NCBI GenBank assembly: GCA_903836515.1
Contig: CAILQW010000009.1
Location: 1 to 32,005, forward strand
From: Candidatus Omnitrophota bacterium
GTDB taxonomy: Bacteria > Omnitrophota > Gorgyraeia > Zapsychrales > Fredricksoniimonadaceae
Reading direction: 5' to 3'
DNA length: 32,005 nt
Positions 25,025 to 31,469 of the stretch are shown in pieces. The position numbers and the translations under genes are program-made. Position 1 is the stretch's first letter. The number at the start of each line of letters is the position of its first letter. Below the pieces are notes generated by a model, which worked only from the letters and a program-made list of their open reading frames with translations, searched no databases and had not been told where the DNA came from.

Positions 25025-25077
25025 AATTGGGTGAAGGGGACTGTCCCCTTCAATTCAACTTCAACCTTCAACCAATT
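25025..25077. repeat. Palindromic repeat copy C, nested hairpin
   Basis: 25033-25051 GAAGGGGAC-T-GTCCCCTTC (perfect 9-bp arms); outer imperfect arms AATTGGGTGAAGG (25025-25037) and CCTTCAACCAATT (25065-25077). Confidence 0.85.
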
Positions 25078-25725: not shown

Positions 25726-25783
25726 GAAGGGGGCCTGTCCCCCGCACTGGGACTGTCCCCTTCTCTTGGACTGCCCCCTTCTC
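25726..25783. repeat. Palindromic repeat copy A: two units plus a third partial unit
   Basis: GAAGGGGGCCTGTCCCCCGCACTGGGACTGTCCCCTTCTC followed by TTGGACTGCCCCCTTCTC. Confidence 0.85.
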
Positions 25784-25823: not shown

Positions 25824-26534
25824 TTAAACTGTTACGTTGTAATACGTCAAAAGATCTTCGACGGATTCCTTCCAGCAGGCCGCCACATCGGGATACCTTT
25901 TGAGCAGGCGTCTTAAATGCAAAACAGCCCGTTCAGTCCCTCGGCTGAATTTTATGGCTGTGGTATAAAAAGACGCGGCCTCCCTGTAACGCCCGGTATA
26001 TTCCATCACAGCCCCCATGTTCTTCCAGGCATTCCAGTGCCGCGGATCACCCCAACGCCTCCGGTGAAGCTTCCAATCCTCTTCATCGAGATCCAATGCA
26101 ATCTGGGCATGTGTTTCCGCCTTGTCGAATTCCTTCTTCATCAAATAACAGAATGCCGTGTTATTGTGCTGCCAGTGACCAGACTCCCCGCGATACGAAC
26201 CGGCGCCGAGGCTGTTTAAATAAAACTCCAGCGCCGCATCAAAATCTGCCTTGTGTTCACTGATCTGCCCCATGCGAAACCATAGCCCAGCCTCATACTC
26301 TTTAAGCAAGGGATTCAATAAAGCCTCCCGACACGCCGCAAGAGCGTCATCGTAATAACCGGCATCGGTATATACCACCGTCAGATCAAGGAGCGCCGAC
26401 CATTTGCCTGTACCCGTTGGCGTCAGGATATAATAGCGCCGCTCTTCTTTGACCCTGTCCAGATCCAATGGGACCCCGCGTCGCCCTGCCATCAGAGAAA
26501 CAAACATTTCTTCCTGCATATCGTAAGACGTCAT
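25824..26534 (-). CDS. TPR-repeat protein (last gene of the accessory operon)
   Basis: Repeated helical pairs such as LLDLTVVYTDAGYYDDALAACREALLNP, WFRMGQISEHKADFDAALEFYLNSL, WKNMGAVMEYTGRYREAASFYTTAIKF. Confidence 0.8.
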   Translation of the reverse strand: MTSYDMQEEMFVSLMAGRRGVPLDLDRVKEERRYYILTPTGTGKWSALLDLTVVYTDAGYYDDALAACREALLNPLLKEYEAGLWFRMGQISEHKADFDAALEFYLNSLGAGSYRGESGHWQHNNTAFCYLMKKEFDKAETHAQIALDLDEEDWKLHRRRWGDPRHWNAWKNMGAVMEYTGRYREAASFYTTAIKFSRGTERAVLHLRRLLKRYPDVAACWKESVEDLLTYYNVTV

Positions 26535-26547
26535 TGTATGTCCTCCG

Positions 26548-27294
26548 TCAAGATTCCTGGAGCGGCCGATACGCCGCTTCGCTCAGGTCAAACGTCCATG
26601 CCACAGCCTCCCTGACCGTCCGCATCTGGGGCGGCACCCGCAATACATAAAATGCACCGGTCGACGGGCATTTCACCTTCACCAAAACGATGGCCTCATC
26701 CCGCCCCGGCAGATCGATGCGGACCAGTGCCTGCTCCCCCTCCTGGTGAAGGATCCGGTGTTCCACCCCGGCCAATAAACGTTCATAACCCAACTCCATC
26801 AGGAATATCCGCCGTATTTCGACATTCTTGACGCCCATCACATGCCTGGCATGGATAGGCGTTTTGGCGATCCACGCGTTAAGCCCTGCAGGAACATCCT
26901 GTCCGCGCAAGAATAGTTCCTGCCCGGCAAATCGCCCCGCCGCGTCCCATTCAAGGCTTAACCCATGACGAACCCCCCTGACAAAGGTGACGCGTTTTCT
27001 TAATTGCCCCAGTTCATCCCACACACGGACCACACCGTGCAAACGCCCCTCGTGATAAGTCTCTTCTTTTCGTTTCTTCCCGTCAGGATAAAATATCATG
27101 CCCGTCCCGTTCAAATAACGCGCCTGCATAGGGTATTCAAACATCAAAGCCCCGTCAGGATAAAAGCCGCGGACTGACTCAGTGATCCCCTGTGCGGCAT
27201 GCTGGCGGGTATAACATAAACGCCTGTCCATCCAATAAAATTGGCCTGGATCCTCAGCTTTCCAACGCATGGGACTTCTTTGCCAAAGATTCAT
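26548..27294 (-). CDS. YwqK/MORN-like repeats fused to a DUF6745-like C-terminal region
   Basis: GFYPDGALMFEYPMQARYLNGTGMIFYPDGKKRKEETYHEGRLHGVVRVWDELGQ... repeats; C-terminal VKCPSTGAFYVLRVPPQMRTVREAVAWTFDL. ATGA overlap with the upstream gene (start MNLWQR at 27294). Confidence 0.65.
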   Translation of the reverse strand: MNLWQRSPMRWKAEDPGQFYWMDRRLCYTRQHAAQGITESVRGFYPDGALMFEYPMQARYLNGTGMIFYPDGKKRKEETYHEGRLHGVVRVWDELGQLRKRVTFVRGVRHGLSLEWDAAGRFAGQELFLRGQDVPAGLNAWIAKTPIHARHVMGVKNVEIRRIFLMELGYERLLAGVEHRILHQEGEQALVRIDLPGRDEAIVLVKVKCPSTGAFYVLRVPPQMRTVREAVAWTFDLSEAAYRPLQES

Positions 27295-28151
27295 GGCCAA
27301 TCTTCCCCAATAAATGAACAGCGCAGGGATCTCGTATCCAGCACCAGACGGCTTCGGTTGTACGCCACTGTTCGTTTTTGTTTGATGAAATACAACTCCC
27401 TTATTTCGGAAGAATCTCCCGTATAAAAAAGAGCTACATTGTCCGAGAACCGGTAGATGTCACCCGCTTCTTTCTGGATCGCTGTTAACAAAGCCTGATT
27501 CAAATCCTGATTCACACGCATATGATCCAGCATCTGTGATGTTCTGATCACGCCGATAATGGCCACATTCAAGGAAGATGCCAGCATCCTCAGGCGCGCG
27601 CAAACCCGATCCCTCTTGCTCCTGAGGAATCGTGCTTCAGGATGATCGTGCAGTCCCACGTCATCGATGGTATCTAGCAAGATCAACTGAACTTTCCTGG
27701 CCTCCACCAGATTCCTTATCGTTTTATCGACAAGTTCAATGTCGTAGTGCCCATCATGAATATAAACAGCCCCTTCCGATAAGGCCCCTGCCGCGGCTGT
27801 AAGCGCAGGGTAATCCGTATCCATTGGGGATAACGGGAACTTCTGGCCGGCATATAAACACAACATCCGCTGGACCAGGGTTTCTTTGGAAAGATCAATT
27901 GAAAAATAGGCACAGGGGATATCATGCCTGACAGCGGCATGAACCGCCATCGTGAGCAACATTGACGTTGAACCAGCCAGCGACCGCGCCAGAACAGACG
28001 TAAACTCTCCCCGGTGCACCGCAAAGCCCGTATCCCCTGCCCCGATGGGGATCCCTACAACGACGGGAGATTTCTGCTGGACTACATTCATGATGCCAGG
28101 GACAATATCCCGCACATGGTCACCCTCTAATAATTTCTTGTTCCAAAGCAC
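27291..28151 (-). CDS. DnaB/RecA-fold helicase C-terminal-domain-like protein, degenerate Walker A
   Basis: IPIGAGDTGFAVHRGEFTSVLARSLAGSTSM aligns by eye with DnaB GIPTG-D...GGxxxGELxVLAARPSMGKT; also YFSIDLSKETLVQRML, VQLILLDT, FIKQKR. Confidence 0.7.
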   Translation of the reverse strand: MLWNKKLLEGDHVRDIVPGIMNVVQQKSPVVVGIPIGAGDTGFAVHRGEFTSVLARSLAGSTSMLLTMAVHAAVRHDIPCAYFSIDLSKETLVQRMLCLYAGQKFPLSPMDTDYPALTAAAGALSEGAVYIHDGHYDIELVDKTIRNLVEARKVQLILLDTIDDVGLHDHPEARFLRSKRDRVCARLRMLASSLNVAIIGVIRTSQMLDHMRVNQDLNQALLTAIQKEAGDIYRFSDNVALFYTGDSSEIRELYFIKQKRTVAYNRSRLVLDTRSLRCSFIGEDWP

Positions 28152-28189
28152 AACATCCCTCCTTTATTAATATACCTGCCGATGCCGCA

Positions 28190-28480
28190 TCAATCCGCCA
28201 CATTACGCCAGCCATCGGGCGTATATTCACGCTGTCGGATCACTTTATAGATGCCTGTCTCAAAAGAAAGCGCATGGTGTTCCTGATGACTTAATGTGCT
28301 GACGTGCCCGTCATCAACCTTGAAATACAAGGTCCCGTCTTGCTCATACACATCCCCCCGGTCAAGCTCGTGTTTATGCCCCGTAGCCTCCCCTTCGGCA
28401 AGCACCCGCGACGGATACGCACATGCCCCCTCGGGTAACTCATCCACTTTAACGATCAACAAATCCCCATGTCTTTTCAT
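28190..28480 (-). CDS. Conserved small His-rich protein (HKH / HQEHH / RQREY motifs), unknown function
   Basis: MKRHGDLLIVKVDELP...VLAEGEATGHKHELDRGDVYEQDGTLYFKVDDGHVSTLSHQEHHALSFETGIYKVIRQREYTPDGWRNVAD; ATGA overlap with the 65-aa gene. Confidence 0.7.
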   Translation of the reverse strand: MKRHGDLLIVKVDELPEGACAYPSRVLAEGEATGHKHELDRGDVYEQDGTLYFKVDDGHVSTLSHQEHHALSFETGIYKVIRQREYTPDGWRNVAD

Positions 28481-28674
28481 GCCCCCTCCCTGGTTTTATT
28501 ATTCTCAATTTCATCCTCATCCGGCCAAATCGGCGCCAGCGTCATCACACGCCACCCCTTGATGTATACTTCCCGCACAACAATACGGTCCTCCATGTCA
28601 TAGGAATCGTAAATCCCATGCATTCCCGGTCTTCTTTTATTCCCATGCTTCTTGATCCATTCATTGATCGTCAT
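28477..28674 (-). CDS. Small protein of unknown function (65 aa)
   Basis: MTINEWIKKHGNKRRPGMHGIYDSYDMEDRIVVREVYIKGWRVM...; 3 nt after the AAA+ stop and ATGA-coupled to the next gene. Confidence 0.65.
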   Translation of the reverse strand: MTINEWIKKHGNKRRPGMHGIYDSYDMEDRIVVREVYIKGWRVMTLAPIWPDEDEIENNKTREGA

Positions 28675-28677
28675 GAC

Positions 28678-30060
28678 TCACCTCAACACGCCTGCAAATC
28701 CCACGGGTTGTTTATTTTCTTTAAGGTACATCCCTTCCTGTTCCATGCGGGCCCCGAACAGCAGGTCTTCCATCGTCATCAGGGACCGTTTCTCCTTCAC
28801 AAGACGACGGAGGGTATTCAGGACCGCATTCTTGATATAGCCGCCGCTCATCACGAATCTCTGGCCAAGGGCTTCAAAATCCACGTCTGGAGCAACAGTA
28901 ACCTTGGGCGGGATCAGCGACCGCCAGATATCCGCACGCAAGGATCGATCCGGGGGTGAAAACTTTACCTTAAGTGAAACCCGCCGCTCCAGCGCCGGGT
29001 CTAGCGCTGTATCAAAATTGGTTGTCAGACACAAAACCCCTTCAAAGCGCTCGATCTCCTGCAACATCACATTCACAAAAGCTATATCGCGCTCGTGTTC
29101 CATCCGATGACGGCTGTAAAGGAGAGAATCCGCCTCATCAAAACAGATGACCGCATCTTTAGCCCTGGCTGTTTTGAAAAGCCCTGCGATATTCTTCTCT
29201 GTTTCACCAAAGAGCTTATCCGTAACCTGAGGCATGGAGACCTGCAGGATCTTCATCTGCAAATGCCTGGCCATGGCATCCGCGAGCATACTTTTGCCTG
29301 TTCCGGGCGGGCCATAGAACAGAAAGATCGCCCCGCGTCCTTTCTTGATCTTGGCGTCAACACCCAGATCCGCGAGCCCGGTCTTCCATGCATCAATATG
29401 GAACAAGACATCTTCTTTGACCTTCGGCGGCAAGATCACATCCTCCATGGCGTAATCGGGAGCCCGCAGGCCAATCCCTTCAGAAGAACCATCTTCTTTG
29501 ACGAAAACCGGTATAGCGGGCGTCGTGCCGGGGACAAACCCCGTTAAGGCTGCACGGGTGGCCGGGTTCAGGTACATTTCCGGATCAGCCTGGCCGGCGG
29601 TTGTCCGGGGCTTCAATATCAAAATGTTCTTCTTAAAAAGAGGGCTTTCAGATGTCAGCGCACTGCGGCATTTGAGCTTTGCATCCCAGGAAACGTCTGA
29701 ATCCAGCAATGCAACAAGTTCTGTCTCCTGCCAGTTATACACAGGGTGAAACATGTCCGTAAACAGAAGGAAGAGCGTAGTCTTTTTCTCAAATGATCCC
29801 AGCGCATGGGCTTCCGCAAAAGCCTCGAAAAGAAATGCCACCCCCGCCACACGGGACGCCTGCACATCCCGCCAGAAAATCTGATCGGCCTCTCTTAAAA
29901 AAGCATCCAGTTCCTTCAGCTCCCGGAGCATGAGCCAATACTCTTTCCCGCACGTGTTTTCACACACATGTTTCCAGATCTTCCCCAAAATACAGCGCTT
30001 CTGGAGATAGAACTCGCAGAGTGTGAAATATTCGCTGAAATAATCCTGATCGTTTTTCAT
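28678..30060 (-). CDS. AAA+ ATPase with ~200-aa variable N-terminal region
   Basis: Walker A FYGPPGTGKSM, Walker B VICFDEAD, sensor-1-like LCLTTNFD, ALERRV. Start MKNDQD at 30060 has SD AGGGGG; ORF track start is 30075. Confidence 0.88.
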   Translation of the reverse strand: MKNDQDYFSEYFTLCEFYLQKRCILGKIWKHVCENTCGKEYWLMLRELKELDAFLREADQIFWRDVQASRVAGVAFLFEAFAEAHALGSFEKKTTLFLLFTDMFHPVYNWQETELVALLDSDVSWDAKLKCRSALTSESPLFKKNILILKPRTTAGQADPEMYLNPATRAALTGFVPGTTPAIPVFVKEDGSSEGIGLRAPDYAMEDVILPPKVKEDVLFHIDAWKTGLADLGVDAKIKKGRGAIFLFYGPPGTGKSMLADAMARHLQMKILQVSMPQVTDKLFGETEKNIAGLFKTARAKDAVICFDEADSLLYSRHRMEHERDIAFVNVMLQEIERFEGVLCLTTNFDTALDPALERRVSLKVKFSPPDRSLRADIWRSLIPPKVTVAPDVDFEALGQRFVMSGGYIKNAVLNTLRRLVKEKRSLMTMEDLLFGARMEQEGMYLKENKQPVGFAGVLR

Positions 30061-30153
30061 ATCCGCCCCCTTCATCTACGTCAATGAACGCATTACTGTC
30101 TGTCCCTCAAACAATCGTAAAGCATTGTTTTATATACGCAAATTTATGAATTA

Positions 30154-30186
30154 ATTATAAGGGGGGATGCCGACAGCCTTGTGTCG
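30154..30186 (-). promoter_or_regulatory. Putative promoter/operator upstream of the AAA+ operon (copy B)
   Basis: Complement CGACACAAGGCTGTCGGCATCCCCCCTTATAAT: TATAAT -10 and dyad CGACA-N6-TGTCG. Matches copy A at 23/33 positions without gaps. Confidence 0.55.
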
Positions 30187-30256: not shown

Positions 30257-30460
30257 TCAAGCTGCCTGGGTTCCTATCATCTGGCCTTTTTCATTATAGG
30301 TGTAAATGGTATTCCCCAAACGGATGCTGACAGCCCCGCTGGTGTATCCCTTTAACCCTTCTTCCGGCCTGCTCCCAGCAGACTTGCTGAATAATTGCTG
30401 ATTTCTTTCGTTATACACATACACTTGACCTCCACGTCGAACTGCGGTTGCGATAGGCAT
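30257..30460 (-). CDS. 67-aa internally duplicated beta-rich small protein
   Basis: Two similar halves: RRGGQVYVYNERNQQLFSKSAG and IRLGNTIYTYNEKGQMIGTQAA; SD AGGAGGAG upstream; own promoter and terminator. Confidence 0.75.
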   Translation of the reverse strand: MPIATAVRRGGQVYVYNERNQQLFSKSAGSRPEEGLKGYTSGAVSIRLGNTIYTYNEKGQMIGTQAA

Positions 30461-30611: not shown

Positions 30612-31469
30612 CTAAACACTTTTGACAATGTGTTGTTTAAAAGTTGAAGGTGACTGTCCCCCGCACTGGGACTGTCCCCTTCTCGAATTCTTGCGAATAT
30701 AAAGCCTTCTTTCGAATCCATGCATCCCCTCAGGTTCACCATCTTGAGAAACTACCGCATAACCCGGCCATACACCATTCCCATGAACATAAAGCAGTTG
30801 CGGAAGTGCTGGCTGAGCAATCTTATATAACCTCGATTCCCTTCCTCCAAACTTTGTCCAACCACCACCCATGCCATGATCCTGAATCACAACAACGGTA
30901 GGACCATATTTATTATTAGAAAATAAAATTTTATACGTTTGTACTGCCTCAGCACATAAGTAGACAAAATTTACTCGTTTATTACTTCGCTCTGAATATA
31001 TCTCCGACAACATCCCAAAGGCATGTAGAGGATCAACTGTTCCATTGCGTGCGGCAGGGTCACACGGCCAAAAATCTTCCCATGTAGAACATCCAAAGAA
31101 AGCTGGATCAATACACCTCGTTTTTTTGATATTGTATCCATTTAATTTAGTATTAATATTATTAAAAAAATCACGAACAACACCTGCGTCATAGTCACAA
31201 TAAATTATTGTCGAAACATCAGACTCCTCAACGAATAGCTTCAATGGATCAACATCCCCACCAGCTCCGGGATAATATAGAGATGGCTCCTTTAGAATAT
31301 AACGCAAATCAATCACATATTTTTGAAGATACTCTCTTGGCGTCAAAAGAGTTTTATTATCAAGTAACGGGATCTCTCGATCTTTTATGTTTGTACCACT
31401 TGTCTTGGAACTCAAAATCTTTCTTGCCCTCACGTCTTCAGCTGTCGCTGCCTTAAAAATACCTGCCAT
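30612..31469 (-). CDS. Protein of unknown function (285 aa), possible Rossmann-like core; C-terminus encoded by repeat DNA
   Basis: DLRYILKEPSLYYPGAGGDVDPLKLFVEESDVSTIIYCDYD; GGGWTKFGGRESRLYKIAQPALPQLLYVHGNGVWPGY; C-terminal RRGQSQCGGQSPS overlaps repeat copy B. Confidence 0.65.
   Translation of the reverse strand: MAGIFKAATAEDVRARKILSSKTSGTNIKDREIPLLDNKTLLTPREYLQKYVIDLRYILKEPSLYYPGAGGDVDPLKLFVEESDVSTIIYCDYDAGVVRDFFNNINTKLNGYNIKKTRCIDPAFFGCSTWEDFWPCDPAARNGTVDPLHAFGMLSEIYSERSNKRVNFVYLCAEAVQTYKILFSNNKYGPTVVVIQDHGMGGGWTKFGGRESRLYKIAQPALPQLLYVHGNGVWPGYAVVSQDGEPEGMHGFERRLYIRKNSRRGQSQCGGQSPSTFKQHIVKSV
30646..30684. repeat. Palindromic repeat copy B, inside the 3' end of the 285-aa CDS
   Basis: GAAGGTGACTGTCCCCCGCACTGGGACTGTCCCCTTCTC, nearly identical to copy A at 25726-25765. 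Confidence 0.9.

What the first reader, a model, noticed from the sequence alone, without database searches (positions are those of the whole stretch)
25824..30075. Compact six-gene operon: AAA+ ATPase, two small proteins, degenerate DnaB-like protein, YwqK/DUF6745-like protein and TPR protein
Seen: six co-oriented ORFs. Spacing is 3 nt, ATGA overlap, ~39 nt, ATGA overlap, ~13 nt, with a putative promoter at 30154-30186. Known families by eye: AAA+ with GPPGTGKS/CFDEAD, DnaB C-terminal fold, TPR, and YwqK/MORN repeats. The C-terminal CPSTG...LRVPP...REAVAWTF block resembles DUF6745 proteins. From memory, unverified, 'QREY' small proteins occur near DUF6745 genes. Inference: this multi-component NTPase set could be a conflict, regulatory or post-translational system with no assigned function.
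Basis: partly seen in the sequence, partly recalled or inferred. Interest (0 to 1): 0.85.

Follow-up and report, generated by a model that had tools for sequence, protein, structure and literature searches.

The report
NTPase operon around QREY–DUF6745 gene pair
An uncultured Omnitrophota bacterium carries a six-gene operon with an ATP-driven motor protein, built around two uncharacterised proteins that are found side by side in many phages and bacteria, which makes an unstudied and probably virus–host-related molecular machine testable.

Summary
In detail: six co-directional genes on the minus strand (25824-30075) of a ~2.0 Mb Omnitrophota MAG, with the stated families and spacings. Comparative work recasts it. 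The heart is a two-gene module, the 96-aa 'QREY' protein plus a DUF6745 protein. In IMG/VR contigs QREY is followed or preceded by DUF6745 in 45 of 46 cases (8 of them contigs that break inside the repeat of the next gene). DUF6745 has QREY in 50 of 50 loci not cut by a contig end. QREY has four conserved histidines, a confident all-beta model without a PDB match, and an Asp C-terminus in 102/102 proteins; DUF6745 ends in T/S/A in 124/126 and swaps repeat scaffolds (MORN_2, LRR, 12-bp minisatellites). Omnitrophota loci add an AAA+ ATPase, a 65-aa protein, a catalytically degraded DnaB-like protein and TPRs, patchily (14/384 genomes), often in defence-island-like settings; phage copies lie among replication and recombination genes. 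Best reading, inferred: a target-recognition plus small beta-protein module coupled to an AAA+ remodeller, used in phage/mobile-element conflict or in steering DNA replication. Biochemical function is unshown. It fails the IetAS, DnaB-helicase and PADLOC membership tests.

The parts
28678..30075 (-). AAA+ ATPase, 465 aa; N-terminal domain (weak WHD match at 50-105) plus AAA module with Walker A GPPGTGKS (255-262), Walker B CFDEAD, sensor 1 TTN, LERR Arg-finger region; predicted active
   Evidence: Pfam AAA 2e-26; motifs conserved in 4 aligned homologues; full-length relatives at 37-43% identity in G154, G264, G250, G066, G057, G288
28477..28674 (-). 65-aa protein (MxxxEW...YDxDGxxVxxxVYIKGxxVMT), single YwqK/MORN-like motif
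   Evidence: No Pfam/NCBIfam/PADLOC/PHROG match; 57% identical 62-aa protein after the AAA+ gene in G154 and a similar 75-aa protein after the AAA+ gene in G288
28190..28480 (-). 96-aa QREY protein: all-beta, four conserved His (H35, H37, H65, H68), conserved G5-D6, E31, QREY 83-86, C-terminal Asp 96
   Evidence: Alignments of 16 and 43 homologues; AF2 pLDDT 88.1; no PDB fold match at E<=0.001; phrog_27831 6.7e-15
27291..28151 (-). DnaB C-domain-like protein, 286 aa, no N-terminal DnaB domain; Walker A Lys replaced by Ser (LARSLAGSTS), catalytic Glu and motif-3 Gln lost: pseudo-NTPase
   Evidence: Pfam DnaB_C 4e-16; motif alignment with DnaB proteins and four QREY-linked relatives
26548..27294 (-). 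MORN_2 repeats (about 40-130) plus C-terminal DUF6745 domain (131-249); partner gene of QREY
   Evidence: Pfam DUF6745 4.6e-20 and MORN_2; AF2 pLDDT 83.7; linkage
25824..26534 (-). TPR protein, 236 aa, probable adaptor
   Evidence: Pfam TPR; 64% identical protein ends the AAA+ operon in G154; 35% relative near QREY in G005
30154..30159 (-). TATAAT -10-like hexamer upstream of the operon; -35 poor
   Evidence: Read from sequence; not in consensus scan
30649..30684 (.). REP-like 36-nt repeat, one flank of the operon
   Evidence: 94% identical to 25730-25765
25730..25765 (.). REP-like 36-nt repeat, other flank of the operon
   Evidence: same core at only two further places in the MAG

Best explanation
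The operon is an NTPase-equipped version of a portable two-protein module, QREY plus DUF6745. The DUF6745 protein carries a swappable repeat scaffold (here MORN_2) that recognises a target, and its conserved C-terminal domain works with QREY, a small all-beta protein with a four-histidine, probably metal-binding centre and a conserved free C-terminal tail. The active AAA+ ATPase remodels or loads this complex on its target. The DnaB-like pseudo-NTPase, the 65-aa protein and the TPR protein act as adaptors. The biological role is most likely conflict with phages or other mobile elements at the level of DNA replication or nucleic-acid processing. Shown: gene content, near-obligate pairing, motif state, patchy distribution, island and phage-replication contexts. 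Inferred: physical complex, metal binding, remodelling, conflict role.
For: QREY and DUF6745 co-occur in 8 of 285 genomes, DUF6745 never without QREY there (hypergeometric 9e-15). Viral contigs: QREY->DUF6745 45/46 counting contigs that end in the repeat; DUF6745->QREY 50/50 uncut; both gene orders occur. Subtypes co-vary: GExTGH with ET-type ends 74, SETGH with RT ends 13, two exceptions, of 89 pairs. QREY ends in Asp in 102/102, DUF6745 in T/S/A in 124/126, while AAA+ C-termini vary. Scaffold swapping: MORN_2, LRR, period-4 repeats. NTPase genes directly upstream of, or in the same run as, QREY in Omnitrophota. Conflict context: WYL regulators within 5 kb at 5 loci, 0.07 expected, a family known to track defence islands (PMC9122601); DndA/SspA, PLD, GHKL, C5-MTase, Vsr, PD-(D/E)XK, DUF1156-MTase neighbours. 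Phage copies lie among DNA polymerase, helicase/primase, RecT, exonuclease, Mu Gam, RepA-like, ParB and methylase genes.
Against: No experiment. No known toxin, nuclease or protease domain, so no obvious effector. PADLOC does not recognise the operon. The AAA+ subfamily also occurs without QREY (5 of 8 genomes). In Deinococcus, Methylobacterium and Streptomyces the pair sits beside STM4011-4015 or VWA/GSP-synthase genes, not defence genes. The five WYL loci may not be independent. One Nostoc plasmid DUF6745 gene lacks an adjacent QREY.
Confidence: 0.4

Rival explanations
1. A DNA-replication or nucleotide-metabolism accessory module of phages, captured by Omnitrophota and Actinobacteria/Deinococcus and put to a host maintenance role; the AAA+ and DnaB-like proteins act as loader and scaffold at replication forks, with no defence role.
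For: Phage pairs lie among replication/recombination genes; the Ma-LMM01 pair is in the polymerase-dUTPase-exonuclease region, outside the published early block gp054-gp063 (PMC5780444); DnaB-like relatives with intact Walker A match phage replicative helicases.
Against: The DnaB-like proteins have lost catalytic residues; patchy presence in 14/384 genomes; Omnitrophota copies lie near restriction/defence genes.
Confidence: 0.27
2. A toxin-antitoxin or immunity-type unit: QREY (or the pair) is toxic and the MORN_2 protein neutralises it, as YwqK does in YwqJK; NTPases are regulators.
For: MORN_2/YwqK-like repeats; near-obligate small+large gene pair; mobile/island distribution.
Against: Both genes are conserved as a pair in phage replication modules; no toxin fold found; both proteins co-conserved down to their C-termini.
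Confidence: 0.12
3. A protein-tagging or C-terminal recognition system: the invariant C-terminal Asp of QREY and Thr/Ser of DUF6745 are ligated, clipped or read by a partner, powered by the NTPases.
For: 102/102 and 124/126 C-terminal conservation in diverged families; QREY tail is conserved but predicted flexible (pLDDT 49-66); radical-SAM genes nearby in other phyla.
Against: No ligase, E1/E2 or protease in the operon; Pfam finds no enzyme domain in STM4014; conserved C-termini can simply be buried in an interface.
Confidence: 0.1
4. Ordinary clustering of unrelated accessory genes, with no joint function beyond the QREY-DUF6745 pair.
For: The full six-gene set was not seen elsewhere; AAA+ and TPR occur without QREY.
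Against: Tight operon with ATGA overlaps; AAA+/small/QREY/DUF6745 order kept in a different family of the class (G288); NTPase directly upstream of QREY at several Omnitrophota loci.
Confidence: 0.11

Closest known systems
DUF6745 (PF20530) proteins with adjacent QREY gene, e.g. Deinococcus sp. QL22, Methylobacterium currus, Streptomyces fungicidicus
   Same: Same two-gene core, same order, same conserved C-terminal domain
   Different: Those have LRR or other N-termini and neighbour STM4011-4015 radical-SAM/hydrolase genes; no AAA+, DnaB-like or TPR genes beside them
Microcystis phage Ma-LMM01 gp175-gp174 and Mycobacterium prophage prophiGD102-1 gp37-gp38
   Same: QREY followed by DUF6745
   Different: Embedded in phage replication modules; different N-terminal region; no operon NTPase of the AAA+ type seen here
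IetAS anti-phage system (PADLOC IetA; NCBIfam NF042959)
   Same: AAA+ ATPase of the same broad family (E 1e-29)
   Different: Score 99 against cut-off 510; no subtilisin-like IetS gene in the operon
DnaB-family replicative helicase C-terminal domain
   Same: Fold-level sequence match (4e-16)
   Different: No N-terminal domain; Walker A Lys, catalytic Glu and motif-3 Gln lost
VMAP/MoxR-vWA-beta-propeller and related diversifying conflict systems (Kaur et al. 2020, PMC7159879)
   Same: General theme: constant NTPase-linked core with swappable repeat modules
   Different: No vWA, MoxR or beta-propeller; DUF6745, STM4015 and MORN are not mentioned in that paper's text

Membership tests
DUF6745 (PF20530) | Profile match above curated cut-off | tested here: met
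   72.2 bits against 27 for window 26548-27300; only profile positions 85-205 covered, the N-terminal part being replaced by MORN_2 repeats
QREY family (phrog_27831-like) | Conserved GD...GExTGHxH...HxEH...QREY...D-COOH in a ~96-120-aa protein next to DUF6745 | tested here: met
IetAS | IetA equivalog score | tested here: not met
   99 bits against cut-off 510
IetAS | Adjacent subtilisin-like protease IetS | tested here: not met
   No protease domain among the ten proteins scanned in and beside the operon
Replicative DnaB helicase | Intact Walker A and catalytic Glu/Gln motifs, N-terminal domain | tested here: not met
   scores about 50 bits against cut-offs of 385 or more
Known anti-phage defence system (PADLOC) | Recognised component set | tested here: not met
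   Only the AAA+ gene resembles IetA/TRIP13 models, plus a weak generic TPR hit; no set
Anti-phage defence system in general | Protects cells against phage | not testable with these tools
   Needs a phage challenge; only genomic context is available
YwqJK-type toxin-antitoxin | YwqJ-like toxin gene beside the MORN_2 (YwqK-like) protein | tested here: not met
   No deaminase/toxin domain in the operon
VMAP ternary conflict system | MoxR AAA+ and vWA proteins | tested here: not met
   No vWA domain; bpMoxR only 11.5 bits against 27

The most novel reading that the evidence does not exclude
QREY and DUF6745 form a new kind of two-protein machine, shared by phages and bacteria, in which a hypervariable or swappable repeat scaffold selects the target and the invariant free C-termini of the two proteins (Asp; Thr/Ser) are joined, clipped or read during an NTP-driven reaction: a protein-tagging or metal-centred modification system with no described relative.
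Probability: 0.12. Interest if true: 0.88.

Novelty: new variant of a known kind. Interest (0 to 1): 0.58.

Why it matters
A gene pair that is close to inseparable across phages, Omnitrophota, Actinomycetota, Deinococcota and Pseudomonadota, with no paper in the held library naming the domain, no solved relative by sequence or fold, C-termini fixed to one residue type, and a phage version with a 12-bp minisatellite, points to a conserved mechanism nobody has worked on. The Omnitrophota operon adds NTPases and adaptors and so suggests which partners to test. If the conflict reading is right, it would be a defence or counter-defence module hidden behind 'hypothetical protein' labels.

Tried and rejected
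Filing it as IetAS: rejected on score and missing protease. Filing the DnaB-like protein as a helicase: rejected on motifs. Cupin reading of QREY from the HxH...HxxH pattern: no cupin among good Foldseek hits. STM4014 as an ATP-grasp ligase supporting C-terminal conjugation: Pfam finds nothing, so not used. AAA+ as a fixed QREY partner: rejected, since 5 of 8 genomes with that N-domain lack QREY. A QREY-DUF6745 fusion protein that would prove contact: none among the viral ORFs. Shared third gene in phage loci: none recurrent. Literature searches for DUF6745 (none), STM4011-4015 (two passing mentions) and related terms led nowhere. The single genome-contig scan returned only two close relatives; a DUF6745 alignment was too divergent for a scan; a second QREY scan only repeated the first. 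A DnaB control for C-terminal residues returned no usable ORFs, so AAA+ C-termini were used.
Full report
What is there. The window is the complete 32,005-bp contig C9 of a ~2.0 Mb metagenome-assembled genome. The nearest named relatives are Candidatus Omnitrophota MAGs. Pfam gives AAA, DnaB_C, MORN_2 + DUF6745 and TPR; the 65- and 96-aa proteins match no Pfam or NCBIfam model. Differences from relatives concentrate in third codon positions for all six.

The core is a two-gene module. In 285 Omnitrophota genomes QREY occurs in 9 and DUF6745 in 8, all 8 shared and on the same contig (P about 1e-14); a profile search of 384 finds QREY in 14. In IMG/VR, 46 contigs encode QREY. DUF6745 is on the same strand in 37, next door in nearly all and 1.2 kb away in one. 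In 8 of the remaining 9 the contig ends inside a repeat-rich ORF that starts like DUF6745 proteins. In the reverse direction, 80 viral DUF6745 loci give 50 with QREY, 30 cut by a contig end and none intact without it. Both orders occur, and two subtypes of each protein travel together: 74 + 13 of 89 pairs, with two exceptions. Exception: a DUF6745 gene on a Nostoc sp. HK-01 plasmid has no QREY within 5 kb. No third gene recurs beside the phage pair.

QREY. Alignments of 16 and 43 homologues show G5-D6, E31, T33, H35, H37, H65, H68, Q83-Y86 and D96 invariant or nearly so. The AF2 model is confident (pLDDT 88) and all-beta; the tail from residue 85 on is low-confidence although it is highly conserved. 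No PDB chain matches at E<=0.001; the viral library gives an uncultured Caudovirales protein (TM 0.77) and rod-shaped archaeal virus proteins (TM 0.57 and 0.48). All 102 distinct proteins with a stop codon end exactly in Asp. A metal site is inferred, not shown.

DUF6745. The C-terminal domain is constant while the scaffold changes: MORN_2 in Omnitrophota, LRR-like in Deinococcus and Methylobacterium, and period-4 amino-acid repeats from 12-bp minisatellites of 36-41 copies in phages. It ends in T/S/A in 124 of 126. AAA+ C-termini from related loci are not conserved. The model is confident (83.7) and finds only MORN or beta-meander relatives in the PDB. This architecture is what one expects of a target-recognition protein with a constant output domain (inference).

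Accessory parts in Omnitrophota. AAA+/small/QREY/DUF6745 recurs in G288, AAA+/DnaB-like/QREY/DUF6745 in G258, DnaB-like/QREY/DUF6745 in G130 and G163, and a CDC48-like AAA directly before QREY in G005. G154, same family, keeps AAA+, the 65-aa relative (57%) and the TPR protein (64%), but has a MurA-like gene and a MORN_2 protein without DUF6745 domain, and no QREY: QREY and the DUF6745 domain are absent together. The AAA+ motifs are intact. The QREY-linked DnaB-like proteins have all lost the catalytic Glu and motif-3 Gln, and the window and G130:C34 versions also the Walker A Lys. The AAA+ N-domain occurs in 8 of 285 genomes, 5 of them without QREY, so it is a recruited partner rather than part of the core.

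Context. WYL-domain regulators are rare in these genomes (15 in 14), yet five QREY loci have one within 5 kb where 0.07 are expected (the loci may not be independent). A WYL family of regulators co-localises with defence islands (PMC9122601). Neighbours include DndA/SspA, PLD, GHKL-ATPase and LmuA-like genes (G130:C3), C5-methylase, Vsr and PD-(D/E)XK genes (G308), and a DUF1156 methylase beside an AAA+ relative (G250); a serine recombinase lies beside the G258 locus. The window operon lies between two 94% identical REP-like repeats and two low-GC stretches. In phages the pair lies among replication and recombination genes. In Deinococcus, Methylobacterium and Streptomyces it lies beside STM4011-4015, and in D. 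ficus beside VWA/DUF350/GSP-synthase genes.

Interpretation. Shown: a real operon, a near-obligate core pair, a degraded DnaB-like protein, an AAA+ protein with intact motifs, patchy distribution, mobile/defence-like and phage-replication settings. Inferred: DUF6745 recognises, QREY supplies a metal-centred or tail-mediated activity, AAA+ remodels, and the use is in phage/mobile-element conflict. I put this at 0.4, with a replication-accessory role at 0.27. The C-terminal invariance is the oddest fact, and neither simple reading explains it. Known systems tested as homes (IetAS, DnaB helicase, YwqJK, VMAP, PADLOC sets) are not met; membership in DUF6745 is. Novelty is therefore set as a new variant of a general kind (NTPase-coupled modular accessory system), with a modest chance that it is something categorically new.

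Noticed in passing
L085:5816-6306, L089:5184-5619 and similar viral loci: Phage DUF6745 genes contain 12-bp-period minisatellites (36-41 copies, about 90% identical) that break metagenome assemblies; possible fast-evolving recognition scaffold.
   Followed up: partly
window 25036-25071, 25730-25783, 30649-30684: REP-like 36-nt repeats (GGGGACTGTCCCC core) flank the operon; the core pattern occurs at only four places in the MAG, two of them here.
   Followed up: partly
L139:8069-9358: A MurA/EPSP-synthase family gene sits inside the related AAA+ operon of G154, between the 62-aa gene and the MORN_2 gene.
   Followed up: no
window 30257-30460; L139:1106-1318: A 67-70-aa protein (QVYVYNERNQQLFS...GNTIYTYNEKGQ) lies upstream of the AAA+ operon in both genomes.
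   Followed up: no
L066:11318-11578, L069:9057-9392, L142:7305-7592: A SemiSWEET/MtN3-like small membrane protein (by eye) lies next to DUF6745 or the AAA+ gene at three Omnitrophota loci.
   Followed up: no
(BFVD A0A0N9P6K3, Q5W358): The QREY model resembles uncharacterised proteins of Acidianus and Sulfolobus rod-shaped viruses (TM 0.57 and 0.48), hinting at a wider viral fold family.
   Followed up: no
L006, L007, L008, L271: QREY-DUF6745 is adjacent to the STM4011-4015 radical-SAM/hydrolase cluster in Deinococcus, Methylobacterium and Streptomyces; the function of that cluster is also unknown.
   Followed up: partly
L268:4227-5300: Nostoc sp. HK-01 plasmid DUF6745 protein without an adjacent QREY gene, an exception to the pairing.
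   Followed up: yes
L065:11350-16407: Possible defence cluster in G130:C3: protease-like LmuA-like protein, DndA/SspA desulfurase, PLD protein, GHKL ATPase.
   Followed up: partly
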